Shown here piece by piece: positions 8,796-22,574 of a DNA stretch of 32,682 nt (position 1 is the stretch's first letter; each line of letters begins with the position of its first letter). This stretch comes from Bacillus sp. J33. Its GTDB lineage: Bacteria; Bacillota; Bacilli; Bacillales; Cytobacillaceae. The notes beneath the pieces were generated by a model. That model was given only the letters and a program-made list of their open reading frames with translations, ran no database searches and was not told the DNA's origin. The DNA is taken from contig NZ_JAEL01000063.1 in assembly GCF_000518885.1 (NCBI RefSeq), positions 1-32,682 of the forward strand, given 5' to 3'. Made by a program: the position numbers and the translations under genes.

Positions 8796-9086
8796 AGTAT
8801 TATTCCCCTTCGTGTCCGTACTGTTTAGCAGAAGTAAGCTTTTCTCTCCGAACTTTCACTGAAACGTTTACTTATTATCAAAAAAAATAAATTAATGATA
8901 TTAATAACCTTAATCCCATAAAAAGTATAACGAAATTGTGACAAAATCACAACACATATAAGTAGGAAACTTGACAATATACGACATGAAGTGGTAAATA
9001 TGTGCACTTATATGCAGGAGTGGCATCCTTATCTTGCGGATTTCTTTTAAAAAAGGTAGCATTAACAGGGTAGAGAGGTGATAGAA

Positions 9087-9326
9087 GTGATCAAGCCAAT
9101 CATCGAATTTTGCATCAGCAATTTGGCCAGCGGCTCTCAAAAAGCGCTGGAAACGCTCGAAAAGGATTATGACCTTGATGTCATTGAATACGGCTGCCTG
9201 GGCTATTGCGGAAAATGTGCAAGCACTCTATTTGCGCTTGTTAACGGTGAAGTTGTAACTGGGGAAACATCAGAAGAACTGGTTGAAAATATATATCAAT
9301 ATTTGGAAGAAAATCCGATGTTTTAA
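9087..9326 (+). CDS. yuzB: YuzB (DUF1450) small cysteine-rich protein
   Basis: A 79-aa YuzB/DUF1450 protein. Conserved cysteines lie at Cys9 (EFCISNLA) and in [10 protein letters not shown] (Cys37, Cys41, Cys44), an arrangement that could bind an Fe-S cluster or zinc and resembles the N-terminus of thioredoxin-like ferredoxins. Function unknown; genomic association is with Fe-S and NADH dehydrogenase genes. GTG 9087 is chosen because AGAGAGGTGA ends 6 bases before it; the in-frame GTG at 9078 lies within that site. A strong terminator follows. Confidence 0.86.
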
Positions 9327-9333
9327 TATTAAG

Positions 9334-9363
9334 AAAAGGAGCGAATTTAATTCGCTCCTTTTG
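9334..9363 (+). terminator. Rho-independent terminator after yuzB
   Basis: AAAAGGAGCGAAT (9334-9346) pairs with ATTCGCTCCTTTT (9350-9362) around a 3-base loop. It marks the boundary between the conserved backbone and the accessory island. Confidence 0.92.
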
Positions 9364-9677: not shown

Positions 9678-9717
9678 TTTATCATGAAGATGATGCCGAT
9701 TAATCTATGTTTTTAAT

Positions 9718-9733
9718 TGGCACAGTTATTGCA
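9718..9733 (+). promoter_or_regulatory. Sigma-54 (SigL) -24/-12 promoter of the lysine island
   Basis: TGGCAC (9718-9723), five bases, then TTGCA (9729-9733) matches the sigma-54 consensus TGGCAC-N5-TTGCW at every position. It faces the catabolic genes, with predicted transcription start near 9745. Known sigma-54 regulons in Bacillus include amino-acid catabolic operons (Roc, Bkd), and I recall kamA-locus control by sigma-54 in the B. cereus group. No enhancer-binding activator gene is in this window, so it must be encoded elsewhere. Confidence 0.85.
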
Positions 9734-10309: not shown

Positions 10310-10360
10310 CAGAGTTTGGTTCTAATAAAGTGGGAGATCACCCTCTTCCATGGTCTTATT

Positions 10361-10442
10361 AAAGCCGGGCAAACATGCAGAATCATTGGGACCCCATCCT
10401 GGGTGTCTTAATGACTGAGCCATGTTTTGCTCGGCTTTTTTT
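10361..10442 (+). terminator. Terminator/attenuator hairpin between the DUF3870 gene and the catabolic operon
   Basis: AAAGCCGGGCAAACATG (10361-10377) pairs with CATGTTTTGCTCGGCTTT (10421-10438), with one G-U pair and one bulge, and seven T follow (10436-10442). The 43-base loop can form its own hairpin (GACCCC with GGGTGTC, one bulge). It lies only 32 bases before the TTG start of the next gene, so it should limit or condition readthrough into the operon. Confidence 0.75.
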
Positions 10443-10473
10443 ATTAATTGAGGAAAAGGGAGGGAAAGGTTCT

Positions 10474-11133
10474 TTGAACAAGATCATTTCAAGTAAGGAA
10501 GCCGCTAATTTAATAAAAAATGGCTCACGAATCATGGTTGGAGGATTTGGATTGGTTGGCAGTCCTTTAACGATTATAGAAGAAATAACAAAAACCAATG
10601 TAAACCAGTTAGAGATCATCAGCAATAACCTTGGTGAACCAGGAAAAGGTCTTGGGGTACTAGTTCAAATGAATAAAGTAAAAAAAGCAATTGGCTCCTA
10701 TTTTACGTCTAACCCTGATGTAGTGAAAGCTTACCAAAAAGGGGAATTGGAAGTGGAGTTGCTTCCGCAAGGCACCTTTTCAGAAGCGATAAGGGCCGGC
10801 GGAACAGGTATAGGAGGATTTTATACTCCCGTTGGAGCTGGCACAGAGCTTGCAGCAGCGAAAGAAGAAAGAGTAATTGATAATAAGCATTATCTTTTAC
10901 AAACCCCTCTTAAAGCGGATTTTGCCTTAATAAAAGCTTGTAAAGCAGATGAACTTGGGAATTTAACATACTCGAAATCAGCAAGAAATTTTAATCCTTT
11001 AATGGCTGCATCCGCAGACATTGTAATTGCAGAGGTTGAAGAAATTGTAAAGTCTGGCGAGCTATCACCAGAAGAAATTGTCACACCCCACTTATTTGTA
11101 GATTATTTGGTTTTAAAGGGAGGAGGAAGGTGA
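10474..11133 (+). CDS. 3-oxoacid CoA-transferase, subunit A (YodS/AtoD-like)
   Basis: A 219-aa family I CoA-transferase alpha subunit. The family signature GGFGLVGSP is at 23-31, followed by NNLGEPGKGLGVL and the glycine-rich GGTGIGGFYTPVGAGT loop. With subunit B it would move CoA between acyl-CoA donors and a 3-keto acid. In the proposed pathway the acceptor is 3-keto-6-acetamidohexanoate (inference). TTG 10474 is chosen because AAAAGGGAGGG lies just upstream; the same frame is open further up (from 10375), but that segment is the terminator hairpin and not protein. Its stop overlaps subunit B as TGATG. Confidence 0.9.
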   Translation: MNKIISSKEAANLIKNGSRIMVGGFGLVGSPLTIIEEITKTNVNQLEIISNNLGEPGKGLGVLVQMNKVKKAIGSYFTSNPDVVKAYQKGELEVELLPQGTFSEAIRAGGTGIGGFYTPVGAGTELAAAKEERVIDNKHYLLQTPLKADFALIKACKADELGNLTYSKSARNFNPLMAASADIVIAEVEEIVKSGELSPEEIVTPHLFVDYLVLKGGGR

Positions 11134-11807
11134 TGAATCCAAAAGAGAGAATTGCCAGGAGGGCAAGCAAGGAGCTGAAGAATAGGGACATTGTTAATTT
11201 GGGAATTGGCATTCCTACACTTGTGGCAGAATATATTCCAGAAAATATTCAAGTATTCTTGCACTCTGAAAATGGAATTTTGGGAGTGGGTCCAGCACCA
11301 AAAGCAGACGCTGTTGATCCGGATATTGTGAATGCGGGAAAACTGCCGGTCTCTATAGAGGAAGGAGCATCCTTTTTTGATAGTGCAGCGTCATTTGGAA
11401 TGATTCGCGGAGGCCATATCGATGTTTCAATTCTTGGAGTGCTTCAAGTTGATAGGAATGGACGTGTTGCTAACTGGGCAGTTCCAGGTAAAAGCGTGTT
11501 AGGTGTCGGAGGGGCAATGGATTTATTGGAAGGTTCAAAAAAAGTCATTGTTACAACGAAGCACACAACAAATGAAGGAGAGCCAAAAATCGTTGAGGAA
11601 TTAAGCTATCCGATTACTTCTAGACGAAAGGTGGACCTCATTATTACAGAATTGGCAGTCTTTAGTGTCCGGGAAGAGGGCCTATTATTAATAGACAAAC
11701 AGCCGAATGTCACATTGCAAGAAATCAATGAAAAAACTGGAGCACATTTTGAAGTGGATCAAAATCTAATTGATAGTAACGACTTGGATGGAGTGGTGGC
11801 AAAATAA
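11133..11807 (+). CDS. 3-oxoacid CoA-transferase, subunit B (YodR/AtoA-like)
   Basis: A 224-aa beta subunit of a family I CoA-transferase. The catalytic glutamate that carries CoA as a thioester is Glu46 in HSENGILGVG, preceded by NLGIGIPTL. The C-terminal half (VDLIITELAVF) is typical of the family. ATG 11133 follows AGGAGG by 6 bases and overlaps the subunit A stop by one base, so equimolar synthesis is likely. It also overlaps the following thiolase by one base (TAATG). B. subtilis YodR and YodS are the closest functional model because they are linked to kamA. Confidence 0.92.
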   Translation: MNPKERIARRASKELKNRDIVNLGIGIPTLVAEYIPENIQVFLHSENGILGVGPAPKADAVDPDIVNAGKLPVSIEEGASFFDSAASFGMIRGGHIDVSILGVLQVDRNGRVANWAVPGKSVLGVGGAMDLLEGSKKVIVTTKHTTNEGEPKIVEELSYPITSRRKVDLIITELAVFSVREEGLLLIDKQPNVTLQEINEKTGAHFEVDQNLIDSNDLDGVVAK

Positions 11808-13000
11808 TGATTGCGATTGTAAACGCTTTCAGATCGCCGATAGGCAGATACGGGGGCTCCTTAGCCGAAATACCGCCCGAAGATTTGCTCACAACCGTAA
11901 TGAATAACAACCTCTCTTCTGTAGGATACGGTTCAGAAATTATCGATGAAGTCATTATAGGCCAAACAAAGCAAAGCGCTGAAACACCCAATATCGCTCG
12001 AGTTGCTTCATTAAAAGCAGGCTTTTCTGAAAAAGTGGTTGGGCATACAGTCCATCTTCAATGCGGTTCAGGAATGCAGGCAATAATAAATGGTGCAATG
12101 TCTATCTTAACGGGTAATGCCCAAGCGGTTTTGGCAGGCGGGGTTGAAAGTATGTCACAGGCCCCGTATTACTTTACAGGCAATCGATTTGGAACAAAGC
12201 CTGGGGACCTGACATTGTTCGACTCTAATGTAAGAAGCCAGCCACGCTCCCAGCCTGAAAACATATATGGGAAATTTTCGATGGGGAAAACAGCTGAATG
12301 GCTAGCTGAAAAATACAAGATAACTAGAGATGAACAAGACCGTTTTGCTTATAAAAGCCAGGAAAAAGCATGGCGAGCCATTGAAAGACAGCAATTCTTT
12401 GATGAAACAGTTCCGATCAGTATTCAGAAAGGAGTAGGGGATGTTGGACTGTTTGCAGTGGATGAGCATCCTAGAAATACCACTTTAGATAAATTATCTA
12501 AACTGTCTCCTGTCTTTATGGAAAACGGAACGGTGACAGCTGGGAACTCATCTGGCAGAAATGACGGAGCGGCTGTTGTGCTGCTTATGGCAGAAGAAAG
12601 AGCAAGAGAGTTAGGGGTCAGGCCAATGGCAATCATCCGTTCATTTGCTTTATCTGGCGTTTCACCGCGTGAAATGGGAATAGGCCCGGTATCTGCAACT
12701 AAAAAAGCGTTAGACAAGGCAGGTCTTACTTTATCAGATATCGATTTGATAGAGCTTAATGAGGCATTTGCTGCTCAAAGTTTAGCCGTTTTGAAGCACT
12801 GGGATGTTAATTTGGACAAGGTCAATGTAAATGGAGGAGCCATTGCACTCGGGCATCCATTAGGCTGCTCAGGGGCTCGGATTTTAGTGACCTTGCTTCA
12901 TGAGATAGACAAAACAAAATTATCTTATGGCCTTGCGACTCTTTGTGTTGCTGGAGGGCAAGGAATAGCCATGGTGGTGGAAAGATGGAAAGACTACTGA
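11807..13000 (+). CDS. Thiolase (acetyl-CoA C-acyltransferase family)
   Basis: A complete 397-aa thiolase. The acyl-accepting Cys86 is in LQCGSGMQAI, the catalytic His350 in GGAIALGHPLGCSG, and the proton-shuttling Cys380 in LCVAGGQG. The NEAFAAQ loop is also present. In this operon it probably cleaves 3-keto-6-acetamidohexanoyl-CoA with CoA into acetyl-CoA and 4-acetamidobutyryl-CoA; a plain acetoacetyl-CoA thiolase that regenerates CoA donor is the alternative. ATG 11807 shares a base with the previous stop. The kamA-linked operon of B. subtilis (yodT to kamA), as I recall it, has no thiolase. Confidence 0.93.
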   Translation: MIAIVNAFRSPIGRYGGSLAEIPPEDLLTTVMNNNLSSVGYGSEIIDEVIIGQTKQSAETPNIARVASLKAGFSEKVVGHTVHLQCGSGMQAIINGAMSILTGNAQAVLAGGVESMSQAPYYFTGNRFGTKPGDLTLFDSNVRSQPRSQPENIYGKFSMGKTAEWLAEKYKITRDEQDRFAYKSQEKAWRAIERQQFFDETVPISIQKGVGDVGLFAVDEHPRNTTLDKLSKLSPVFMENGTVTAGNSSGRNDGAAVVLLMAEERARELGVRPMAIIRSFALSGVSPREMGIGPVSATKKALDKAGLTLSDIDLIELNEAFAAQSLAVLKHWDVNLDKVNVNGGAIALGHPLGCSGARILVTLLHEIDKTKLSYGLATLCVAGGQGIAMVVERWKDY

Positions 13001-14361
13001 CAAATGACTATGTGTTTCATCGCGATTTTACCAAGGAATATCCAATTATTTCTTATGGCAAGGGAATTTATTTATACGACAAAAATGGAAAAAGCTATAT
13101 CGATGCTTGTTCAGGTGCAGTTGCGGCCAACCTTGGCCATGGTATCGACGAAATTGCCCAGGCTATTGCTGATCAAGCGAAAAAGGCTGCATTTGTTCAT
13201 ACGATGAGATTTGAAACAGACATACTTCATTTATTGGCAGAGAAAATTGGCAAATTAGCACCTGAAGGGCTAAATAGGGTTTATTTTACTACTGGTGGCT
13301 CTGAAGCGAATGAGAGTGCCATTAAGCTGGCCAGGCAATACCATAAAGACTCCGGCAAGCATGGAAAACACGTAGTTATTGGCCGCTGGCAATCCTACCA
13401 CGGCAATACATTTGGCTCTCTTTCCGCGGGAGGGGATATTAAAAGAAGGCAGCCGTATACACCTAATCTCCTGCCATTTGAGCATATCTATTCCCCAAAT
13501 TGCCGCCATTGTCCATATAACAGGAAAAAAGGAGTCTGCGAACAGCATCGGGATTGGTCATGCGTCCAGGACTTTGAGCGTCTCATTCTGCAAATAGGCC
13601 CGGAAAACATTTCAGCCTTTATTGCCGAGCCGATTACAGGGAGCCAATTAGGAGCTGTGGCACCGCCGCAATATTATTTTAAAGAGATTAGAGAGATTTG
13701 TGACCGCTATGATATCCTGCTCATTCTAGATGAAGTAATGACGGGGTTTGGGCGAACTGGGAAACATTTTGCTTTAGAACATTTTGGGATTAGTCCGGAC
13801 ATTATTACTTTTGGGAAAGGGGTATCAGCAGGATATGCTCCTTTAGCAGGAATGATCGCAAGTGACAAGATTATTGACAGCCTTATCCAGAACAGCCAAG
13901 GAAAGTTTATTCATGGGTACACGTATAGCGGTCATCCAGTTTCAGTTGCAGCAGGACTGTCGGCATTAAGGATATACGAGCGGGAAAATATTGTGGAAAA
14001 CGCAAAGGAAATGGGATCGTATCTTTTTCACAAATTACTTGAGCTAAAAGAGAAGTATCCTTTTATTGCAGATGTTCGGGGCGAAGGGCTGCTAATCGGA
14101 ATAGAACTATTGAAAAATAAACGGCCTTCCGCTGCTTTTCCTGCAAATTATAAGATTTCAGAACGATTAAATGAATTAGCCATGGAGCTGGGTGCGGTTA
14201 TCTATCCAGGAAGCGGCTCCATAGATGGCGTGGCCGGGGACCATTTTATTATTAGTCCGCCCCTGAATATTTCGAAGGATGAAATTGATGAACTAATAAT
14301 CATATTAGATCATTCACTAAAACTGCTTATACATGAATTAAAGGAGGAGTTAGCACTATGA
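12985..14361 (+). CDS. Class III aminotransferase, YodT-like (candidate acetyl-beta-lysine aminotransferase)
   Basis: A 458-aa fold-type I PLP enzyme. The glycine/PLP-phosphate region is TTGGSEANESAIKLAR, the Asp contacting the PLP ring is in LILDEVMTGFGRTG, and the Schiff-base lysine is Lys278 (TFGKGVSAGYAPL). It carries a Cys-rich insert (YSPNCRHCPYNRKKGVC) as in related class III aminotransferases. Linked to kamA, it is best read as transaminating the 3-amino group of N6-acetyl-beta-lysine (inference from YodT). ATG 12985 overlaps the thiolase end by 16 bp, with GGTGGTGG before it. It overlaps the next aminotransferase as ATGA. Confidence 0.88.
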   Translation: MERLLTNDYVFHRDFTKEYPIISYGKGIYLYDKNGKSYIDACSGAVAANLGHGIDEIAQAIADQAKKAAFVHTMRFETDILHLLAEKIGKLAPEGLNRVYFTTGGSEANESAIKLARQYHKDSGKHGKHVVIGRWQSYHGNTFGSLSAGGDIKRRQPYTPNLLPFEHIYSPNCRHCPYNRKKGVCEQHRDWSCVQDFERLILQIGPENISAFIAEPITGSQLGAVAPPQYYFKEIREICDRYDILLILDEVMTGFGRTGKHFALEHFGISPDIITFGKGVSAGYAPLAGMIASDKIIDSLIQNSQGKFIHGYTYSGHPVSVAAGLSALRIYERENIVENAKEMGSYLFHKLLELKEKYPFIADVRGEGLLIGIELLKNKRPSAAFPANYKISERLNELAMELGAVIYPGSGSIDGVAGDHFIISPPLNISKDEIDELIIILDHSLKLLIHELKEELAL

Positions 14362-15653
14362 AATTGAAGAATAAATCAATTGAAATTGCTGAAAAATCCA
14401 AAAAACATCTTTCACCTGTAATGACAAGAGTAACGGAAATGGTTATTGACAAGGCCAAAGGAGCCAAGTTTTGGACTGCAGATGGCGAGGAATATTTAGA
14501 TTTTGTATCAGGGGTTGCGGTAAATGCGGTTGGCCATTCCCACGAGCAAATGGTTAAAGCGATTAAAGAACAAGCGGAGTCGCTTATCCATTTTGGCTTA
14601 AATTATGGATACTATGAAACGGCAGCCAATCTGGCTGAGAAAATTGCCCAAATCACACCTGGTAATTTGGACACTGTCTTCTTTTCTAATTCGGGGGGAG
14701 AAGCCATTGATGGAGCTATTAAACTAGCAAAGGCGGCAACCAATAGACCGGCCATAATCGCCTTTGAAGGTTCATTCCACGGGCGTACTCTGGGTGCTAC
14801 AGCGATTACTGCTTCAAGTTCAAAATACAGGCGCCATTATGAGCCAATCTTGGGAGAGGTATATCATGTGCCATATCCAAACCCAAATCAATTGAAAGAA
14901 GTTGATGAAGAGAAGGTGGTTTCCTATTGTCTCAGCCAGCTTCAAAAATTGTTTGATCTGAGAGTGGATCCATCCAGAGTTGCTGCTATTATTATTGAAC
15001 CTGTCATGGGAGAGGGAGGATATTACCCTGCACCAGCCGAGTTCCTGCGGGAACTGAGAAGGATAACAGAGAAGCATGGGATATTGCTGGTTTTTGATGA
15101 AGTACAAACTGGTTTTGGAAGAACAGGGAAGATGTTTGCTGCTGAACATGCTAATGTCACACCAGATATTCTGGTTTTGGCAAAAGCATTATCTGGAGGA
15201 ATGCCTTTAGGTGCAATTGTAGCAAATAGAGAGCTCCACGAGAAATGGAGTGCAGGAGCTCATGGTTCTACATTTGGAGGAAATCCTATTTCGTGTGCTG
15301 CTGCATTGGCCAATATTAACATTATTGAAGAAGAGAAATTAGTTGAGCGCAGTCATCACGTAGGAAATAGGATAGTGAATAGATTAAGAGAAACGCTGGA
15401 GAACCTTCCTGGAATCATTGATATACGCGGGTTAGGGATGATGATTGGCATTGAATTTGACACCAGGCTAGCCATGGAGGCTGTTCCAAAAATTAAAGAG
15501 GAAGCACTAAAAAATAAGCTGCTTATTATGAATTGCGGCGTTCAAGGCCAAACCATTCGGCTTATGCTGCCTCTGAATATTGATGAAGCTGAGTTAGACC
15601 AGGGCTTAACCATATTAGAGCAATCCATTATTACAGTATTAAAGGGGAGGTAA
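14358..15653 (+). CDS. GabT-like 4-aminobutyrate (omega-amino acid) aminotransferase
   Basis: A 431-aa class III aminotransferase distinct from its upstream neighbour. Motifs are NSGGEAIDGAIKLAK, SFHGRTLGA, IIEPVMGEGGYYPAP, LVFDEVQTGFGRTGK and the PLP lysine Lys276 in LAKALSGGMPLGA. The GSTFGGNP segment is typical of GabT and ornithine/acetylornithine aminotransferases. Followed at once by an aldehyde dehydrogenase, it most likely converts GABA to succinate semialdehyde. AAGGAGG precedes ATG 14358, and the start overlaps the upstream stop as ATGA. Substrate is inferred from context; other omega-amino acids are possible. Confidence 0.9.
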   Translation: MKLKNKSIEIAEKSKKHLSPVMTRVTEMVIDKAKGAKFWTADGEEYLDFVSGVAVNAVGHSHEQMVKAIKEQAESLIHFGLNYGYYETAANLAEKIAQITPGNLDTVFFSNSGGEAIDGAIKLAKAATNRPAIIAFEGSFHGRTLGATAITASSSKYRRHYEPILGEVYHVPYPNPNQLKEVDEEKVVSYCLSQLQKLFDLRVDPSRVAAIIIEPVMGEGGYYPAPAEFLRELRRITEKHGILLVFDEVQTGFGRTGKMFAAEHANVTPDILVLAKALSGGMPLGAIVANRELHEKWSAGAHGSTFGGNPISCAAALANINIIEEEKLVERSHHVGNRIVNRLRETLENLPGIIDIRGLGMMIGIEFDTRLAMEAVPKIKEEALKNKLLIMNCGVQGQTIRLMLPLNIDEAELDQGLTILEQSIITVLKGR

Positions 15654-15657
15654 TTTT

Positions 15658-17118
15658 ATGTACGAGAACGTAAAGGCCGAACTTGAAAAAGCAGACTTGT
15701 ATATTGATGGAAACTGGGTTTGTGATCACGATCAGTCCTATTTCGATAGTGTTAACCCATCAACGCTTGAAGTTGCAGGAGTCTGTGCCAGCGCTTCTGC
15801 AGCTCAAATAGATTTGGCTGTTGATGCTTCAAAACGGGCTTTTAAAACTTGGCGCAAAACCCCAGTATCAGAAAGAGCAGATTATTTATGGAAGGCTGCT
15901 AACGCTTTCGAAAAGAAAAAGCTGGAAATTGCTGAAATGATGACAAAGGAAATGGGCAAAGTTCTCGGAGAATCTTTGGGAGAGGTTAATGTTGTAATTG
16001 AAACCTGTAAATATATGGCTGGTGAGGGCCGCAGACTTTTTGGCGAATCGGTTCCATCTGGTTCCCCTGACCGGAACATCTTAATGATCAGGGAACCGCT
16101 TGGTGTTGTAGCTTGCATCACACCATGGAATTTTCCGGTTGCTCTTGCCGGATATAAAATATTGGCAGCTTTAATCACGGGAAATACAGTAGTCTGGAAG
16201 CCGGCTTCTGAAACAGCGCTATCCGCCAAACTATTTACAGAGGTTTTTGATGAAATCGGTCTGCCTCCAGGAGTGCTGAACCTCATTATGGGCTCTGGAA
16301 GAACCGTTGGGGAGAAGCTATCCATGCATAAACATGTAAACGTAGTTTCATTCACAGGATCTACTTCTGTTGGATGCAAGCTGTCAGAGATATGCAGTAA
16401 AACTCTTAAACGGATTTCTTTGGAGCTTGGAGGAAAAAACGCAGTCATTGTCCTGGAGGATGCTGATCTGGATAAGGCAGCTGAAGCAATTGTAAAGTCT
16501 GCTTTTACCACTACTGGCCAAAGATGTACCGCTGCGAGCAGGGTGATTGCCCAAAAGAATATCGCCTCTGAACTATTAACTAAGGCAGTTAATCTTACAA
16601 AGTCATTAAAGATTGGAAATGGGCTCAATGAAGACAGCGATATCGGGCCTCTTGTTAATAAGAATCAGCTGAAAATTGTTGAAGAATATGTGCAAATTGG
16701 AGCTGCAGAAGGCGGAACTATTGTTTGCGGCGGAAATAGGGTTCATGACTTAAAAGGCTATTTCTATGAACCAACTATTCTTTCGAATATCAGGCCGCAT
16801 CATCGCATTGCTCAAGAAGAGATATTTGGACCAGTATTAGCCTTTATTGAGGTAGATTCATTTGAAGAAGCCATTGAAGTAAATAATGATACAGTGTATG
16901 GACTATCAACCTCTATTTTCACAAATAATCTTAAGCTTGCAAACATGGGAGCAAGAGATGTAGAAAGCGGTCTTGTTTACATTAATAATGGAACTTCAAA
17001 TGCTGAGCTGGGCGTTGCTTTCGGCGGAATGAAACAATCAGGCAACGGCCACCGTGAGGTTTCTTATCACGCTTTTGATGTGATGACAGAATGGAAATCA
17101 ATTTATACATCTTATTAA
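15658..17118 (+). CDS. NAD(P)-dependent aldehyde dehydrogenase, probable succinate-semialdehyde dehydrogenase
   Basis: A 486-aa ALDH-superfamily enzyme. The catalytic nucleophile is Cys290 (TTGQRCTAASR), the general base Glu256 (LELGGKN), and TPWNFPVALAGYK and FTGSTSVG mark the cofactor fold. The C-terminal AFGGMKQSGNGHRE is family-typical. Position directly after a GABA aminotransferase suggests oxidation of succinate semialdehyde to succinate, although sequence alone does not separate this from related semialdehyde dehydrogenases. Ribosome binding site AGGGGAGG before ATG 15658, 4 bp after the previous stop. Confidence 0.9.
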   Translation: MYENVKAELEKADLYIDGNWVCDHDQSYFDSVNPSTLEVAGVCASASAAQIDLAVDASKRAFKTWRKTPVSERADYLWKAANAFEKKKLEIAEMMTKEMGKVLGESLGEVNVVIETCKYMAGEGRRLFGESVPSGSPDRNILMIREPLGVVACITPWNFPVALAGYKILAALITGNTVVWKPASETALSAKLFTEVFDEIGLPPGVLNLIMGSGRTVGEKLSMHKHVNVVSFTGSTSVGCKLSEICSKTLKRISLELGGKNAVIVLEDADLDKAAEAIVKSAFTTTGQRCTAASRVIAQKNIASELLTKAVNLTKSLKIGNGLNEDSDIGPLVNKNQLKIVEEYVQIGAAEGGTIVCGGNRVHDLKGYFYEPTILSNIRPHHRIAQEEIFGPVLAFIEVDSFEEAIEVNNDTVYGLSTSIFTNNLKLANMGARDVESGLVYINNGTSNAELGVAFGGMKQSGNGHREVSYHAFDVMTEWKSIYTSY

Positions 17119-17137
17119 TCAGCATTGGATGTGACTA

Positions 17138-18634
17138 ATGATGAAGACTTATCGTATTGGAATCGCATTTTTCTATCATGAATCACACAGTTTTAGTCCT
17201 GTGAAGACTGAAATTATCGATTTTAAAAATGAAGGGTATTTTAAGGGCGACCAAATTGTCAAAGCCTATAATGGCACAATGACGGAAGTTGGCGGTTTCC
17301 TGGATCAGCTTAGCAAGGAAAAGGATATTGAAATCGTTCCATTATTATGCGCAGCTGCCACTCCATCAGGTATTGTTTCGAAAGAAGCTTACATGATGAT
17401 AGAAGAGGATATGCTCAATTCAATTCAACAAGCTTCACACCTGGATGGAATGTTACTTGCTTTGCATGGTGCGATGATCGTTGAAGACATGTTTGATCCT
17501 GAAGAGGTATTAATGGGAAAAATCAAATCCCAGTTGGGTCCTGGAACACCAATCGCCACTACGCTTGATATGCACGCTAATTTAAGTGAGAAAATGATGG
17601 GTTACACACCGTATCATTTCGGGTTTAAAACATATCCTCATACCGATATGTATGAGCAAGGAATAAATGCTGCCAGAATGCTAGTCGAACATGTCAGGGG
17701 AGACGCGAGCTATTATTCAGCCTTCCGAAAGCTCCCGATGATGCCTCCTTCTATCAATATGAGGACGGAAGAAGGTCCCATGAAGAAAATGATTGATTTG
17801 GCTTTTAAAATGGAAAGCAAGGAAGAAATCGCAAATGTGTCCGTTTTTGGCGGATTTCCTTATTCAGATATCCCGATGGCTGGTGCGAGTGTCCATGTTA
17901 TCGGGAGGAATAAAAAAGCTGCTGAAGATACAGCTGATTTTCTTGCAAAGCAATACTGGGATATTAGAGAGGAATTCATTGTAAAGCTTCCAAGCGCAAA
18001 AGAAGGATTGCAGCTTGCAATATCTCTGAATACGGATAAGCCGGTCGTCTTGGCAGATATATCTGATAATCCCTTAAGCTGTGGAAGCGGTGATACAACA
18101 CTATTATTAAGAGAGATGATTGATGCAAATGTGCCAAATACATTATTTGGCGCACTAACCGATCCTCAGTCTATAGAAGCATGTACTAACGCTGGTGTAA
18201 ATCAAATGGTCCAATTGAATCTCGGTGGGAAAACCTCTCCTGAGTTCGGGCTCCCTGTCCCTGTTATGGCTAAGGTAATCGCTTTATCAGATGGAGTATT
18301 TTGTAACAGCGGACCCATGAATAAACATTTAAGAGTAGATGTTAAGGGAGCTGCACATATCCGGGTCGGTGAAGTAGATATCTTACTTATTGGAAGGCCG
18401 ATGTCAGCTAACGATCCTCAATTGTTTCGCCACATAGGGATTGAACCAAAAAACAAAAAAATACTTGGTTTAAAGGCAAAAAATCATTTTCGGGCAGCTT
18501 TTGATCCCCTGGTTAGCAAAGTGATTTACGTAGATGCACCAGGTGTATCGTCTAATAACCTATTAAATTTCAATTATCGGAATATACCGGAAAATATGTG
18601 GCCCATAAAGAGCCCAACCTACTCGTTACATTAA
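17138..18634 (+). CDS. M81-family metallohydrolase (MlrC-like), candidate 4-acetamidobutyrate deacetylase
   Basis: A 498-aa protein of the MlrC/DUF1485 family, known from microcystin breakdown. The N-terminal catalytic domain has the zinc-binding set Asp144 and His146 (TTLDMHANLS) and His168 (KTYPHTDMYEQG), spaced as in characterised MlrC, plus LLALHGAMIVEDM. The C-terminal MlrC domain contains LADISDNPLSCGSGDTT. No signal peptide, so it is cytoplasmic. The ribosome binding site before ATG 17138 is weak (GGATGTG), which suggests coupling to the upstream gene. The expected M20-type deacetylase YodQ is absent from this operon, so I infer that this enzyme removes the acetyl group from 4-acetamidobutyrate to give GABA. 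Not demonstrated. Confidence 0.85.
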   Translation: MMKTYRIGIAFFYHESHSFSPVKTEIIDFKNEGYFKGDQIVKAYNGTMTEVGGFLDQLSKEKDIEIVPLLCAAATPSGIVSKEAYMMIEEDMLNSIQQASHLDGMLLALHGAMIVEDMFDPEEVLMGKIKSQLGPGTPIATTLDMHANLSEKMMGYTPYHFGFKTYPHTDMYEQGINAARMLVEHVRGDASYYSAFRKLPMMPPSINMRTEEGPMKKMIDLAFKMESKEEIANVSVFGGFPYSDIPMAGASVHVIGRNKKAAEDTADFLAKQYWDIREEFIVKLPSAKEGLQLAISLNTDKPVVLADISDNPLSCGSGDTTLLLREMIDANVPNTLFGALTDPQSIEACTNAGVNQMVQLNLGGKTSPEFGLPVPVMAKVIALSDGVFCNSGPMNKHLRVDVKGAAHIRVGEVDILLIGRPMSANDPQLFRHIGIEPKNKKILGLKAKNHFRAAFDPLVSKVIYVDAPGVSSNNLLNFNYRNIPENMWPIKSPTYSLH

Positions 18635-18647
18635 GGAGGAAATAGAC

Positions 18648-19127
18648 ATGACGATAGCAGAGAAATCTTTTTACATTGAAGTTCCTTCTTCATTAAACCC
18701 GGATCAGCTGCAGATTATGATGGCGATGGAGAAGGATGCCTTTCCTGGACTTGGTGCCATCGATGAACAGACTCTTGTTCCTTTGGCCAGATATGGAAAA
18801 ATTATTCTTTATCGGGAGGAAGGAGATTCAAGGCCCATTGCTGTTTGTGAATTAATGAGGGACTACCAGGATGTTAACAAGGCATATATCTTTGGATTTT
18901 ATGTTCGTTCTGATCAGCAAGGCAGAGGGATTGGCAAAAAATTCTTAGGGGATATTTTCCCTATTTTAAAAGAAGATCGCTTTAAGAAAGTCTGCCTAAC
19001 GGTCAGTACCCATAATACTAGTGCTGTAAAGCTATATGAACGAACAGGGTTTGAGATCAAAGGAACCAGGTTTTCTGAGTTTGGTGCAGGTGAAGACCGC
19101 TATTATATGGAGAAGGACATCAGATAG
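18648..19127 (+). CDS. GNAT N-acetyltransferase, candidate beta-lysine acetyltransferase (short form)
   Basis: A 159-aa single-domain GNAT protein. The acetyl-CoA pyrophosphate loop is QGRGIG (91-96, pattern Q-x-x-G-x-G), after the beta strand IFGFYVRSD, and the C-terminal TVSTHNTSAVKLYERTGFE is classic GNAT motif B. It lies directly before kamA, the place of yodP/ablB, so acetylation of the 6-amino group of beta-lysine is the natural role. However, YodP and AblB are considerably longer (about 270-280 aa, from memory), so this is not simply ablB. Strong site AAGGAGG before ATG 18648. Confidence 0.85.
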   Translation: MTIAEKSFYIEVPSSLNPDQLQIMMAMEKDAFPGLGAIDEQTLVPLARYGKIILYREEGDSRPIAVCELMRDYQDVNKAYIFGFYVRSDQQGRGIGKKFLGDIFPILKEDRFKKVCLTVSTHNTSAVKLYERTGFEIKGTRFSEFGAGEDRYYMEKDIR

Positions 19128-19181
19128 TATCATTCCTGGATTTTAGGATTAAAATAAAAACCTATTTTAGGAGGGAATAAA

Positions 19182-20594
19182 ATGTTACAGCAACTTTATA
19201 AACCTAAAAAGCATTGGAAGGAATTTGAACTGTGGAAGGATGTAACAGATGAGCAGTGGAATGATTGGGTCTGGCAGCTTACCAACACAATCAAAAATGT
19301 TGAAGACTTGAGAAAAATCATTAATTTAACGCCTGAGGAAGAAGAAGGAGTTAAAATTTCCACAAAAACAATTCCATTGAATATTACACCTTACTATGCT
19401 TCTTTAATGGATCCGGATGATCCCAGATGTCCAATCCGCATGCAATCTGTACCAATTTCAAGCGAAATTAATAAAACAAGATATGATTTAGAAGACCCTC
19501 TTCATGAAGATGAAGATTCACCTGTACCAGGATTAACCCATCGATACCCGGATCGAGTATTATTTCTGGTAACTAACCAATGCTCAATGTATTGCCGCTA
19601 TTGTACAAGAAGAAGATTTTCCGGCCAAATAGGAATGGGCGTTCCTAAAAAGCAATTAGATGCAGCAATCGGGTATATTCGCGAAACGCCTGAAGTAAGG
19701 GACGTGTTAATTTCCGGTGGGGACGGCTTATTAATTAATGACAATATTCTAGAGTACATTCTTAAAAATTTACGGGATATTCCGCATGTTGAGATTATTC
19801 GTATCGGGACAAGAGCACCAGTTGTATTCCCTCAAAGAATTACAGAAAATTTATGTAATATCCTAAAAAAATATCATCCAGTTTGGCTGAATACACACTT
19901 TAATACATCAATTGAAATCACTGAAGACTCAAAACGCGCATGTGAAATGCTGGTAAATTCCGGAGTGCCAGTAGGTAATCAGTCCGTTATTTTAGCTGGC
20001 ATTAACGACAGCGTACCAATTATGAAAAAGCTGATGCATGATTTAGTCAAAATTAGAGTCCGCCCTTATTACATTTATCAATGTGATTTATCCGAAGGGA
20101 TTGGGCATTTCAGAGCACCAATCAGTAAAGGCTTAGAGATTATGGAAGGCCTGAGAGGGCATACATCAGGATATGCAGTGCCAACGTTTGTTGTAGATGC
20201 ACCAGGGGGCGGTGGCAAAATACCGCTTCAGCCAAATTACATCATTTCACAAAGTGCTGGTAAAGTCGTTCTTCGAAACTTTGAAGGGGTCATTACTTCT
20301 TATCCGGAACCAAGCACGTACGAACCTGGTAAGGCGGATTCTTATTATAATAAGTTATACCCTGAAGTCTACGAAAACTATGAAAGCACTGGCGTTTTAT
20401 CGATTCTGGATGATAAGAGTTTCAATATCGTGCCGGAAGGACTAAAAAGATTGGATAAACGTGAATCCTATAAAGAAAATCCTAACCATGATTCTCTTAA
20501 GAACAAACGGGATAAACGTGATGAGTTAAAGGAGAAAAAGTATCAAACACAATTGAAAAAGTACTTTGCCGGTGCAGGAAGCAAGGGGGAGTAA
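19182..20594 (+). CDS. kamA: Lysine 2,3-aminomutase
   Basis: Radical-SAM, PLP-dependent enzyme that interconverts L-lysine and L-beta-lysine. The 470-aa protein has the [4Fe-4S] motif Cys134-x3-Cys138-x2-Cys141 (NQCSMYCRYCTRRR), the SGGDGLL and IRIGTRAPVVFP segments, and the PLP lysine Lys346 in DAPGGGGKIPL. The C-terminal tail beyond about residue 420 is highly charged (Lys/Arg/Glu-rich), as in Bacillus KamA and unlike the shorter clostridial enzyme. GGAGGG precedes ATG 19182. A 54-bp gap separates it from the acetyltransferase gene, the second largest break within the operon core. Confidence 0.96.
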   Translation: MLQQLYKPKKHWKEFELWKDVTDEQWNDWVWQLTNTIKNVEDLRKIINLTPEEEEGVKISTKTIPLNITPYYASLMDPDDPRCPIRMQSVPISSEINKTRYDLEDPLHEDEDSPVPGLTHRYPDRVLFLVTNQCSMYCRYCTRRRFSGQIGMGVPKKQLDAAIGYIRETPEVRDVLISGGDGLLINDNILEYILKNLRDIPHVEIIRIGTRAPVVFPQRITENLCNILKKYHPVWLNTHFNTSIEITEDSKRACEMLVNSGVPVGNQSVILAGINDSVPIMKKLMHDLVKIRVRPYYIYQCDLSEGIGHFRAPISKGLEIMEGLRGHTSGYAVPTFVVDAPGGGGKIPLQPNYIISQSAGKVVLRNFEGVITSYPEPSTYEPGKADSYYNKLYPEVYENYESTGVLSILDDKSFNIVPEGLKRLDKRESYKENPNHDSLKNKRDKRDELKEKKYQTQLKKYFAGAGSKGE

Positions 20595-20597
20595 GCT

Positions 20598-20876
20598 TTG
20601 ATTTGTGAATGGTGTGAGGAAGGAATCGTAGCAGAGTCAAGAGATACTGTGTTTTGGGAATTGCCAGATGGAAAACTGTCTATTGAAATAAACGAGACTC
20701 CATCAATCTATTGCCGCAGCTGCGGAATGAATTACCAATCAGAAGAAACGGTAAAAGCCATTGAAGATCAACTTTATTTAATTGATACACGTAACATGGA
20801 AAAAAAATTAAGCTATGAAGAATTAATGTCAAAGCCTCGCTTATTAAAAAGAAACTATTTTGATTTCAGTCAATAA
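20598..20876 (+). CDS. YokU family zinc-ribbon protein
   Basis: A 92-aa protein with two CxxC pairs, Cys3/Cys6 (ICEWCEEG) and Cys39/Cys42 (YCRSCGMNY), the layout of YgiT-type zinc fingers; I recognise it as the YokU family, which commonly neighbours kamA in bacilli. The helix KAIEDQLYLID follows the zinc knuckle. Function unknown; a role in maturation or regulation of KamA is conceivable. The start is TTG 20598, only 3 bp after the kamA stop, with AGGGGGAG before it; this tight linkage suggests stoichiometric co-expression. Confidence 0.82.
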   Translation: MICEWCEEGIVAESRDTVFWELPDGKLSIEINETPSIYCRSCGMNYQSEETVKAIEDQLYLIDTRNMEKKLSYEELMSKPRLLKRNYFDFSQ

Positions 20877-20972: not shown

Positions 20973-21149
20973 TATAAGTTTATGTTATTATTGACTAATA
21001 GTTTAAAAAAATCCGTCATTCAGGATTGATCTTGTGTAAATAATCTGAATATTTGGAAAAAATTCCATTTTCTTGTATTTATGATTAAGTGGCTGGAAAC
21101 TTTCGCACATACCTGTAATGGCACAATATTCAATGAAGGAGGAAAATAT

Positions 21150-22574
21150 TTGGATACTAAAAAGAAAGAAGTTTCCTTTAGTTTAGCTATTTTACCTTTG
21201 GCTGCGATGATGGCTGCTATGGCATTTACAATTATCGTTTTTGAGGGCAGTCCCCATGTTCCGCTTATCTTTGGTACATTGATCGCTGCCTTTATCGCGT
21301 GGAGAGTTGGATATGGCTGGAAGGATATCGAGGAAGGATTATACAAAGGAATTCGTTTAGTTTTACCTGCTGTGCTGATTCTTATCGTGGTTGGAATGAT
21401 TATTGGATCATGGATCGGCGGCGGAGTTATCGCATCAATGACTTACTTCGGATTAAAGCTGCTATCCCCTGCCTATTTCCTTGTGGCTATTACATTAATT
21501 TGCAGTGTTGTATCCTTAGCTATCGGCAGCTCTTGGTCTACTATGGCCACAATCGGGGTAGCTGGAATGGGAATTGGTATGAGCATGGGGATTCCTGCCC
21601 CGATGATTGCGGGGGCTGTCATTTCCGGGTCCTATTTTGGGGACAAGATGTCACCTTTATCCGATACTACGGTTTTAGCATCAGGCCTATCTGGTTCGAA
21701 TTTATTTGATCATATTAGACATATGCTTTATACCACGATCCCGGGGCTCATTATTGCACTTGGCGTCTATTGGTATCTCGGGAGGCAATTTTCACCTGCA
21801 ACAACTGGGGCCGGGGAAATCGATAGTGTATTAAAAACCCTGCAGGAGCATTTTGTAATTTCTCCATTTCTTCTCCTGATCCCTGTTATTGTTATTGTTC
21901 TTGTTGCACGCAAGGTCCCGGCTCTTCCTGCTCTTATATTAGGTGTTATCCTTGGTTCATTGGCTTCGGTTTTCATACAGGGCAGTTCAGTAGGGGAAGC
22001 GGTCACTGCTCTGCAGGCGGGCTTTACCCTGGAATCGGGAAATGAGATGGTAGATACCCTGCTGAACCGCGGAGGCATTGATGGCATGATGTATACCATC
22101 TCTTTAATTCTGGTTGCAGCTGCCTTTGGAGGAGTACTGGAGAGTGTCGGAATGCTGGAAGCGATTGTAAAGCAGATTTTAAAGTTGGTAAAGTCGGACA
22201 AAGGATTACTATCTTCTACCGTTTTGACAGCGTTTTTTACCAATATTGTATCGGCTGACCAATACCTCTCCATTGTTGTACCATCACGTATGTACTCCAA
22301 GGCCTATCAGGGTCGAAACTTGCATCCAAAGAATCTCTCACGTGCTTTAGAAGATGGCGGAACCATTACGTCCGTTTTTGTTCCATGGAATACCTGTGGA
22401 GTTTTCATATTCGGTACATTAGGCGTCTCTGCATTTGCTTATGCCCCATATGCTATTTTAAATTTTTCGGTTCCAATTATTTCCATTATTTTTTCAATAA
22501 TTGGCTTTTCTGTAGTCAAGCTGTCAGATATAAATGCAAAAAGAATCACAAATGAAGTGGAAGATGCAGTATAA
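21150..22574 (+). CDS. NhaC-family Na+/H+ antiporter-like transporter
   Basis: A 474-aa polytopic membrane protein with about 11-12 hydrophobic segments. The NhaC hallmark GSYFGDKMSPLSDTT follows the loop SSWSTMATIGVAG, and NIVSADQYLSIVVPSRMY and a VPWNTCGVF segment are in the C-terminal half. NhaC relatives include plain Na+/H+ antiporters, MleN (malate/lactate) and amino-acid carriers. Next to the lysine genes it could import lysine or export acid products, or buffer pH during deamination (inference). TTG 21150 follows AAGGAGG; the frame is open upstream from 21081 but without a binding site. A strong terminator closes the island. Confidence 0.88.
   Translation: MDTKKKEVSFSLAILPLAAMMAAMAFTIIVFEGSPHVPLIFGTLIAAFIAWRVGYGWKDIEEGLYKGIRLVLPAVLILIVVGMIIGSWIGGGVIASMTYFGLKLLSPAYFLVAITLICSVVSLAIGSSWSTMATIGVAGMGIGMSMGIPAPMIAGAVISGSYFGDKMSPLSDTTVLASGLSGSNLFDHIRHMLYTTIPGLIIALGVYWYLGRQFSPATTGAGEIDSVLKTLQEHFVISPFLLLIPVIVIVLVARKVPALPALILGVILGSLASVFIQGSSVGEAVTALQAGFTLESGNEMVDTLLNRGGIDGMMYTISLILVAAAFGGVLESVGMLEAIVKQILKLVKSDKGLLSSTVLTAFFTNIVSADQYLSIVVPSRMYSKAYQGRNLHPKNLSRALEDGGTITSVFVPWNTCGVFIFGTLGVSAFAYAPYAILNFSVPIISIIFSIIGFSVVKLSDINAKRITNEVEDAV

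What the first reader, a model, noticed from the sequence alone, without database searches (positions are those of the whole stretch)
10474..20876. One operon appears to encode a complete acetylated route from lysine to succinate
Sequence shows in order: two CoA-transferase subunits, thiolase, two class III aminotransferases, aldehyde dehydrogenase, M81 hydrolase, GNAT, kamA, yokU, with overlaps or short gaps. The only published-type relative I know (B. subtilis yodT-S-R-Q-P-kamA) covers only the first part. Adding a thiolase, a GABA aminotransferase and a semialdehyde dehydrogenase closes the route: lysine, beta-lysine, N6-acetyl-beta-lysine, 3-keto-6-acetamidohexanoate, its CoA ester, acetyl-CoA plus 4-acetamidobutyryl-CoA, GABA, succinate. 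The CoA-transferase could use 4-acetamidobutyryl-CoA as CoA donor, so that CoA cycles within the pathway. Net output would be succinate, acetyl-CoA and acetate.
Basis: partly seen in the sequence, partly recalled or inferred. Interest (0 to 1): 0.9.

Follow-up and report, generated by a model that had tools for sequence, protein, structure and literature searches.

The report
Lysine-degrading operon with a different route
A Cytobacillus bacterium carries, beside the usual lysine-breakdown genes, a second operon that probably turns lysine, by way of acyl-protected beta-lysine and a six-carbon diacid, into succinyl-CoA and acetyl-CoA, a lysine route that I know of no description of.

Summary
The gene order is real: CoA-transferase A/B, thiolase, aminotransferases AT1 and AT2, aldehyde dehydrogenase (ALDH), M81 hydrolase, GNAT, KamA, YokU. 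The window is Cytobacillus. The same genome has a second, classical kam locus with YodT, YodSR, M20 YodQ, AblB, KamR, KamA, so this is not an extended yod operon. Eighteen genomes in five families hold the block; in one the thiolase is a remnant.

Here the CoA-transferase is not YodSR (one clade rejected, AU p = 9e-13); its nearest group, weakly supported, holds Bacillaceae catechol-cluster enzymes. The ALDH has Tyr where succinic-semialdehyde dehydrogenases have Arg (21 of 21). Two genomes keep AT1-AT2-ALDH-M81-GNAT together, CoA-transferase and thiolases elsewhere.

Best reading: N3-acyl-beta-lysine, 3-aminoadipate, 3-oxoadipate, succinyl-CoA plus acetyl-CoA. A covarying leader RNA, unmatched in Rfam, precedes the CoA-transferase genes in 13 of 397 genomes searched.

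The parts
9717..9733 (+). sigma54 -24/-12 promoter, perfect consensus match
   Evidence: 0 mismatches. One search finds a perfect match also in L011 but none within 1 mismatch in L006-L010, L174, L187
9995..10309 (+). DUF3870 protein
   Evidence: PF12986, 1.6e-28; upstream of the block in all 18 genomes
10312..10443 (+). leader RNA: small two-helix domain, then a terminator-like stem with a T run, before the CoA-transferase start
   Evidence: (9 of 36 pairs with compensatory change); no Rfam family at gathering score
10474..11133 (+). CoA-transferase subunit A (TTG start)
   Evidence: TIGR02429 and PF01144 (given the ORF from 10375); tree
11130..11807 (+). CoA-transferase subunit B, SENG motif Glu47, Lys71
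   Evidence: TIGR02428 299 bits, over cut-off
11807..13000 (+). thiolase, Cys86/His350/Cys380
   Evidence: TIGR01930 465 bits, over cut-off
12994..14361 (+). class III aminotransferase AT1, proposed 3-aminoadipate (beta-amino acid) transaminase
   Evidence: PF00202; 44% to YodT; pocket columns
14358..15653 (+). class III aminotransferase AT2, proposed omega-transaminase of N-acyl-beta-lysine
   Evidence: PF00202; GabT residues R141, E211, K268, R398 kept
15658..17118 (+). aldehyde dehydrogenase, Cys290/Glu256, Tyr166 in place of the succinic-semialdehyde Arg
   Evidence: PF00171
17138..18634 (+). M81 (MlrC-like) metallohydrolase, proposed deacylase
   Evidence: PF07364, PF07171; PDB 7ylq and 3iuu; E15, H110, D144, H146, H168 in 22 of 22
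18648..19127 (+). GNAT acyltransferase, not AblB
   Evidence: PF00583; no TIGR03827 match
19182..20594 (+). KamA, lysine 2,3-aminomutase
   Evidence: TIGR03820 640 bits, over cut-off
20598..20876 (+). YokU zinc-finger protein
   Evidence: TIGR03829, over cut-off
21081..22574 (+). NhaC/ArcD-type antiporter, possibly a lysine or beta-lysine transporter of the same regulon
   Evidence: TIGR00931 468 bits; in genome G777 a copy of the leader RNA directly precedes an 83% homologue

Best explanation
The operon encodes a second, different beta-lysine route that ends in the beta-ketoadipate steps. KamA makes L-beta-lysine (3,6-diaminohexanoate). The GNAT acylates N3, so that the later aldehyde cannot close on it. 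AT2 removes the terminal amine and the ALDH oxidises the aldehyde, giving N-acyl-3-aminoadipate. M81 removes the acyl group. AT1 transaminates 3-aminoadipate to 3-oxoadipate. The CoA-transferase, with succinyl-CoA as donor, makes 3-oxoadipyl-CoA, and the thiolase yields succinyl-CoA plus acetyl-CoA. Shown: gene content, conservation, that the CoA-transferase is not YodSR, the ALDH residue, the partial forms. Inferred: every substrate, the order, the acylated nitrogen and the acyl group (acetyl or succinyl). In logic the upper half resembles the E. coli AST pathway, the lower half PcaIJF/CatIJF.
For: CoA-transferase: one clade with YodSR is rejected (p 8.8e-13). Its sister group, weakly supported (80/74), holds the enzyme of catechol clusters in Peribacillus and Priestia that also carry DUF3870 and a thiolase. 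Asn52(A) and Lys71(B), kept in 18 of 18 rows, are also in the Pca, Cat and Sco rows shown from that half of the tree; the 17 YodSR rows and E. coli AtoDA have Asp and Gly. Thiolase: sister to a clade with catechol-cluster thiolases (84/76). ALDH: Tyr in 21 of 21 where SSADHs have Arg213 (PMC11681614 passages). AT1: at GabT columns 77, 80, 141, 211 it has H, R, N, Q in 8 of 8 rows; YodT has Y, Q, I, A in 37 to 40 of 40. In L221 DUF3870-CoAT-thiolase-AT1 go with TctCBA and M81, without AT2, ALDH or GNAT in 16 kb, as if an N-acylated diacid were imported.
Against: No enzyme was assayed. I first read L175 and L176 as holding GNAT-AT2-ALDH-M81 without AT1, CoA-transferase and thiolase; the fetched stretches ended at AT2, and one search shows the missing genes just beyond, so that argument is gone. 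The thiolase clade also holds members from other acyl-CoA clusters, and the thiolase fails the PcaF cut-off (377 against 597 bits). AT2 groups with GabT/PuuE rather than ArgD/AstC in a small tree (86/82). The classical ALDH also lacks the SSADH Arg. The AT1 comparison was filtered mainly for positive charge in AT1, and two columns go the other way. G529 and G204 hold the block, one KamA and AblB. N3-acylation has no direct evidence.
Confidence: 0.54

Rival explanations
1. One reading: the GNAT acetylates N6, AT1 gives 3-keto-6-acetamidohexanoate, CoA-transferase and thiolase give 4-acetamidobutyryl-CoA, M81 deacetylates, AT2 and ALDH act as GABA transaminase and succinic-semialdehyde dehydrogenase.
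For: All enzyme families are present; AT2 keeps the GabT active-site residues and sits nearest GabT/PuuE (86/82); some classical loci pair a GabT and an ALDH with AblB. The pathway is known from Pseudomonas enzymology (recalled).
Against: GNAT is not AblB; CoA-transferase is not YodSR; ALDH lacks the SSADH Arg; AT2 is under the GABA-transaminase cut-off (387 against 507 bits); in G067 and G023 CoA-transferase and thiolases are split off from the other five.
Confidence: 0.18
2. The operon handles another diamino acid or an N-substituted amino acid and KamA only feeds part of it; the chemistry is of the same type (acylate, transaminate, oxidise, deacylate) on a different main substrate.
For: In 6 of the 17 genomes with enough downstream sequence KamA does not follow the block (L174, L187, L210, L214, L175, L176). 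In L175 and L176 FAD-oxidase and SoxA-like genes stand inside the block, in L175 also an amino-acid binding-protein gene; in L212 the leader RNA precedes an amino-acid ABC transporter and a FAD oxidase.
Against: KamA-YokU follow the block in the other 11 of 17, and all 22 tested genomes that hold the block or part of it have KamA, against 85 of 159 in the order sample; the 22 are related, so not independent.
Confidence: 0.18
3. GNAT and M81 work apart from the catabolic route (for example acyl-beta-lysine as an osmolyte and its recall), and the remaining enzymes degrade free beta-lysine.
For: AblB-type GNATs make an osmolyte in archaea (recalled). In L221 M81 stands without GNAT.
Against: GNAT and M81 stay together with AT1, AT2 and ALDH in all 18 blocks and in L008-L010.
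Confidence: 0.05

Closest known systems
Classical yod/kam locus (B. subtilis yodTSRQP-kamA, recalled; B. thuringiensis kam locus; C146 in this genome)
   Same: KamA (83% identical within this genome), YokU, a YodT-like aminotransferase, a CoA-transferase; sigma54 promoter (B. thuringiensis kam locus, PMC4428206 passages)
   Different: M81 in place of M20 YodQ, non-AblB GNAT, different CoA-transferase clade, different ALDH (34%), an added thiolase, no KamR among the operon's genes
Beta-ketoadipate pathway, catechol branch, of Bacillaceae (L077, L145, L146)
   Same: CoA-transferase A/B, thiolase and DUF3870 in one cluster
   Different: Those clusters hold ring-cleavage and muconate enzymes; this operon holds amino-acid enzymes instead
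E. coli AST pathway (astCADBE)
   Same: Logic: acyltransferase, omega-transaminase, semialdehyde dehydrogenase, deacylase (one search names the genes)
   Different: GNAT and M81 in place of the AST acyltransferase and deacylase, and a proposed beta-amino acid product that needs AT1, CoA-transferase and thiolase
Pseudomonas N6-acetyl-beta-lysine pathway (recalled)
   Same: Acyl-protected beta-lysine degraded to C4 + C2
   Different: Position of the acyl group and the intermediates, if the best reading is right

Membership tests
classical yod/kam locus | KamA over TIGR03820 cut-off | tested here: met
   640 against 525.4 bits
classical yod/kam locus | AblB acetyltransferase TIGR03827 | tested here: not met
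   no match; the C146 copy gives 316 against 205 bits
classical yod/kam locus | M20 deacylase YodQ in the operon | tested here: not met
   M81 instead; YodQ is at C146
classical yod/kam locus | YodT aminotransferase (PRK06917 cut-off) | tested here: not met
   483 against 535 bits; C146 YodT 751
classical yod/kam locus | CoA-transferase in the YodSR clade | tested here: not met
   AU p = 8.8e-13
beta-ketoadipate PcaIJ/CatIJ | pcaI/scoA and pcaJ/scoB family cut-offs | tested here: met
   228.5 against 128.5 and 299 against 243.55 bits; these families include ScoAB, and the YodSR pair of C146 passes them too
beta-ketoadipate PcaIJ/CatIJ | clade with a CoA-transferase of a ring-cleavage cluster | tested here: inconclusive
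   sister at 80/74
beta-ketoadipate PcaF | TIGR02430 cut-off | tested here: not met
   377 against 597 bits
succinic semialdehyde dehydrogenase | Arg213 (human numbering), kept in all SSADHs | tested here: not met
   Tyr in 21 of 21; rule from PMC11681614 passages; the mapping through E. coli GabD is mine
GABA transaminase | TIGR00700 cut-off | tested here: not met
   387 against 506.65 bits; active-site residues kept
M81 metallohydrolase | both Pfam domains and five Glu/His/Asp positions shared with MlrC and 3iuu | tested here: met
   metal role recalled
N3-acyl-beta-lysine route | enzyme activity on the proposed substrates | not testable with these tools
   needs assays

The most novel reading that the evidence does not exclude
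An undescribed lysine catabolic pathway, beta-lysine to N3-acyl-beta-lysine to 3-aminoadipate to 3-oxoadipate to succinyl-CoA plus acetyl-CoA, with an M81 hydrolase as deacylase and an undescribed attenuator-type leader RNA that also precedes transporters (NhaC, an amino-acid ABC transporter), possibly a riboswitch for lysine or beta-lysine.
Probability: 0.35. Interest if true: 0.87.

Novelty: new variant of a known kind. Interest (0 to 1): 0.7.

Why it matters
If right, lysine meets 3-oxoadipate, the central intermediate of aromatic degradation, a lysine route that I know of no description of (two searches of the open-licence PMC library, found no paper; most subscription papers are not held there). 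It would give a concrete function to one M81 clade, a GNAT clade and possibly DUF3870, separate two lysine routes within one genome, and offer a candidate new regulatory RNA with a small, testable regulon. It also warns that naming such operons by analogy with yod/kam could name several substrates wrongly.

Tried and rejected
Both stretches ended at AT2; L224 and L225 show DUF3870-CoATa-CoATb-thiolase-AT1 directly upstream. With it fell the claim that AblB is absent from every block-holding genome with one KamA. I lowered the best explanation from 0.62 to 0.54 and the novel case from 0.4 to 0.35, and raised two rivals (from 0.15 to 0.18 each); the third rival went from 0.08 to 0.05.

Also tried: matching the leader RNA to Rfam (nothing at a gathering score). 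The idea that GNAT homologues beside an enolase-superfamily gene (L178-L185) are N-succinylamino-acid racemase partners: one search found a muconate-cycloisomerase/epimerase-type protein and a C45 acylase in L182, which leaves the acyl group open; one search found no paper. The thiolase as proof of 3-oxoadipyl-CoA: dropped. E. coli AstD, PuuC and GabD stand on long branches in the ALDH tree, so that tree was not used for function. In the aminotransferase tree two rows labelled YodT (L033, L048) are GabT. In one search the row cGabT_L003 is the YodT gene, because gabT there is in pieces. In the presence table AT1 and AT2 hit each other, so searches were used. The second element in G589 (L220, E = 0.009) looks like a plain palindrome and is treated as probably false. 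Paper searches returned nothing; one returned one unrelated clinical paper (listing only).
Full report
1. Observation. The ten genes are present in the stated order and strand, tightly packed. Upstream stand a DUF3870 gene, a perfect sigma54 promoter match at 9717 and, between DUF3870 and the CoA-transferase, a structured leader. Downstream is an NhaC/ArcD-type antiporter.

2. Host and second locus. The genome (5.56 Mb, 196 contigs) holds a second kamA. That locus, C146, is a classical kam locus: YodT, CoA-transferase A/B, M20 YodQ, a GABA aminotransferase in pieces, an ALDH, AblB, a KamR-type sigma54 activator, KamA, YokU. No thiolase was matched in its 14 kb. Between the two loci KamA is 83% identical but CoA-transferase A/B 44/50%, AT1-YodT 44% and ALDH 34%. 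B. thuringiensis has a sigma54- and KamR-controlled kam locus (PMC4428206, passages).

3. Survey. Of 159 genomes of the order, 85 have KamA and 17 have M81. I took 60 of the KamA places with up to about 10 kb on each side. In these 60 no thiolase matched the queries; one (L064) has M81 and GNAT; 9 show a GabT-like gene, 15 an ALDH of the classical kind, 4 both; full-length GabT was confirmed in 7 of 7 loci tested, L003 set aside. The block CoATa-CoATb-thiolase-AT1-AT2-ALDH-M81-GNAT, preceded by DUF3870, was found in 18 genomes of five families: the window, L004/L011, L005, L006, L007, L174, L187, L210, L211, L214, L215, L217-L219, L222, L223, and G529 and G204 (L224+L175, L225+L176), where transporter and FAD-oxidase genes are set into it. 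In L187 only the two ends of the thiolase are left (query residues 1-38 and 267-396). KamA-YokU follow directly in 11 of the 17 with enough downstream sequence; L215 ends at its contig end.

4. Partial forms. L008 (G101): KamA, YokU, CoA-transferase and the five-gene set; the genome's thiolases lie elsewhere. L009 (G067) and L010 (G023): AT1-AT2-ALDH-M81-GNAT, with KamA about 11-15 kb away. In these two genomes the only CoA-transferase B at E up to 1e-20 is elsewhere, 61% identical to the window's, and every thiolase listed is elsewhere; a 529-residue CoA-transferase-like protein (29-30%) does stand some 4 kb before the set in L009. L221 (G770): DUF3870, leader RNA, CoA-transferase, thiolase, AT1 (49%), TctC-TctB-TctA, M81, and no AT2, ALDH or GNAT match in the 16 kb fetched. 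The L221 set is a run in both, but a tricarboxylate-type transporter suits a diacid better. All this rests on one genus and one genome.

5. CoA-transferase. In a tree of 37 rows the window group falls with Pca/Cat/Sco rows (100/98), apart from YodSR (100/99). Its sister, at 80/74, is the catechol-cluster group of Peribacillus and Priestia plus the lone pairs of G067 and G023. Holding it with YodSR is rejected (p 8.8e-13). Asn52 of subunit A and Lys71 of subunit B are kept in 18 of 18 rows of this kind and in the Pca, Cat and Sco rows shown, while the 17 YodSR rows and E. coli AtoDA have Asp and Gly. I read this as a mark of a succinyl-CoA donor; that is recalled and inferred, and one search found no paper on it.

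6. ALDH, AT1, AT2. Human SSADH Arg213 is kept in all SSADHs (PMC11681614, passages). The window ALDH and 20 relatives have Tyr there (21 of 21). The classical ALDH has His in the two rows printed, so this residue speaks against SSADH for both loci. AT1 (8 rows) differs from 40 YodT rows, those of 61 loci that passed length and identity filters, at active-site columns by polar residues, as a diacid substrate would ask for. The script looked mainly for positive charge in AT1; two fixed columns go the other way (Asp148 and Tyr309 in AT1 where YodT has His). AT2 keeps the GabT residues R141, E211, K268 and R398, shared with other omega-transaminases, so they do not fix its substrate.

7. AblB and KamA. 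AblB was found in the five Cytobacillus genomes with the block, and in G529 and G204; it was not found in G101, G067, G023, G029 and G072, five genomes of two other families that hold the block or its five-gene part with one KamA. So of seven tested genomes with one KamA, five lack AblB. All 22 tested genomes with the block or part of it have KamA (12, 10). These genomes are related, so neither number counts independent cases.

8. Leader RNA. Seven leaders align. RNAalifold gives 36 pairs, 9 with compensatory changes. The first helix never varies among the seven, but in L212, L213 and L221 one of its A-U pairs reads G-C (sequences printed). A model of the 55-base first part finds 17 sites in 13 of 397 genomes of the order; three of those genomes, and four further loci, supplied the model. 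Thirteen sites, one in each genome, precede the CoA-transferase genes; that of G770 is weak (E = 0.004). One further site precedes an NhaC homologue (83%), one an amino-acid ABC transporter with a FAD oxidase, one a PEP-synthase-like gene, and one is probably false. Within the genus the core pattern occurs in 5 of 36 genomes, once each; these are the five whose block was mapped.

9. Verdict. The best reading is an AST-like conversion of beta-lysine to 3-aminoadipate followed by the beta-ketoadipate steps (confidence 0.54, lowered from 0.62). Activities, the acylated nitrogen and the acyl group remain to be shown.

Noticed in passing
window 10312-10443; L005, L006, L007, L011, L174, L187, L210, L211, L214, L215, L217-L219, L221-L223: Covarying leader RNA with a terminator-like stem, no Rfam match; extra copies before an NhaC homologue (L213), an amino-acid ABC transporter plus FAD oxidase (L212) and a PEP-synthase-like gene (L216).
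   Followed up: partly
L175, L176 (with L224, L225): In G529 and G204 the block has FAD-oxidase (ThiO/SoxB-like) and SoxA-like genes set into it, and in L175 an amino-acid binding-protein gene: a possible supply route from an N-substituted amino acid.
   Followed up: partly
L003 7128-8262 (G000 C146): The GABA aminotransferase of the classical kam locus is in pieces in this genome, while several relatives carry it whole.
   Followed up: no
L187 14105-14609: In G072 only the two ends of the thiolase gene remain; the rest of the block is present.
   Followed up: no
L077, L145, L146: Bacillaceae plasmids carry catechol (beta-ketoadipate) clusters with a DUF3870 gene beside the thiolase, a hint at a role of DUF3870 in this chemistry.
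   Followed up: no
L178-L185: In one genus of the class, relatives of the GNAT (46-50%) sit next to an enolase-superfamily gene; in the one scanned, L182, also a C45-type acylase and a peptide-binding-protein gene.
   Followed up: partly
L011, between DUF3870 and CoATa: About 200 extra bases stand between the leader RNA and the CoA-transferase start in this C. oceanisediminis genome and not in the window.
   Followed up: no
window 9078-9362: DUF1450 protein upstream of the operon, followed by a strong hairpin.
   Followed up: no
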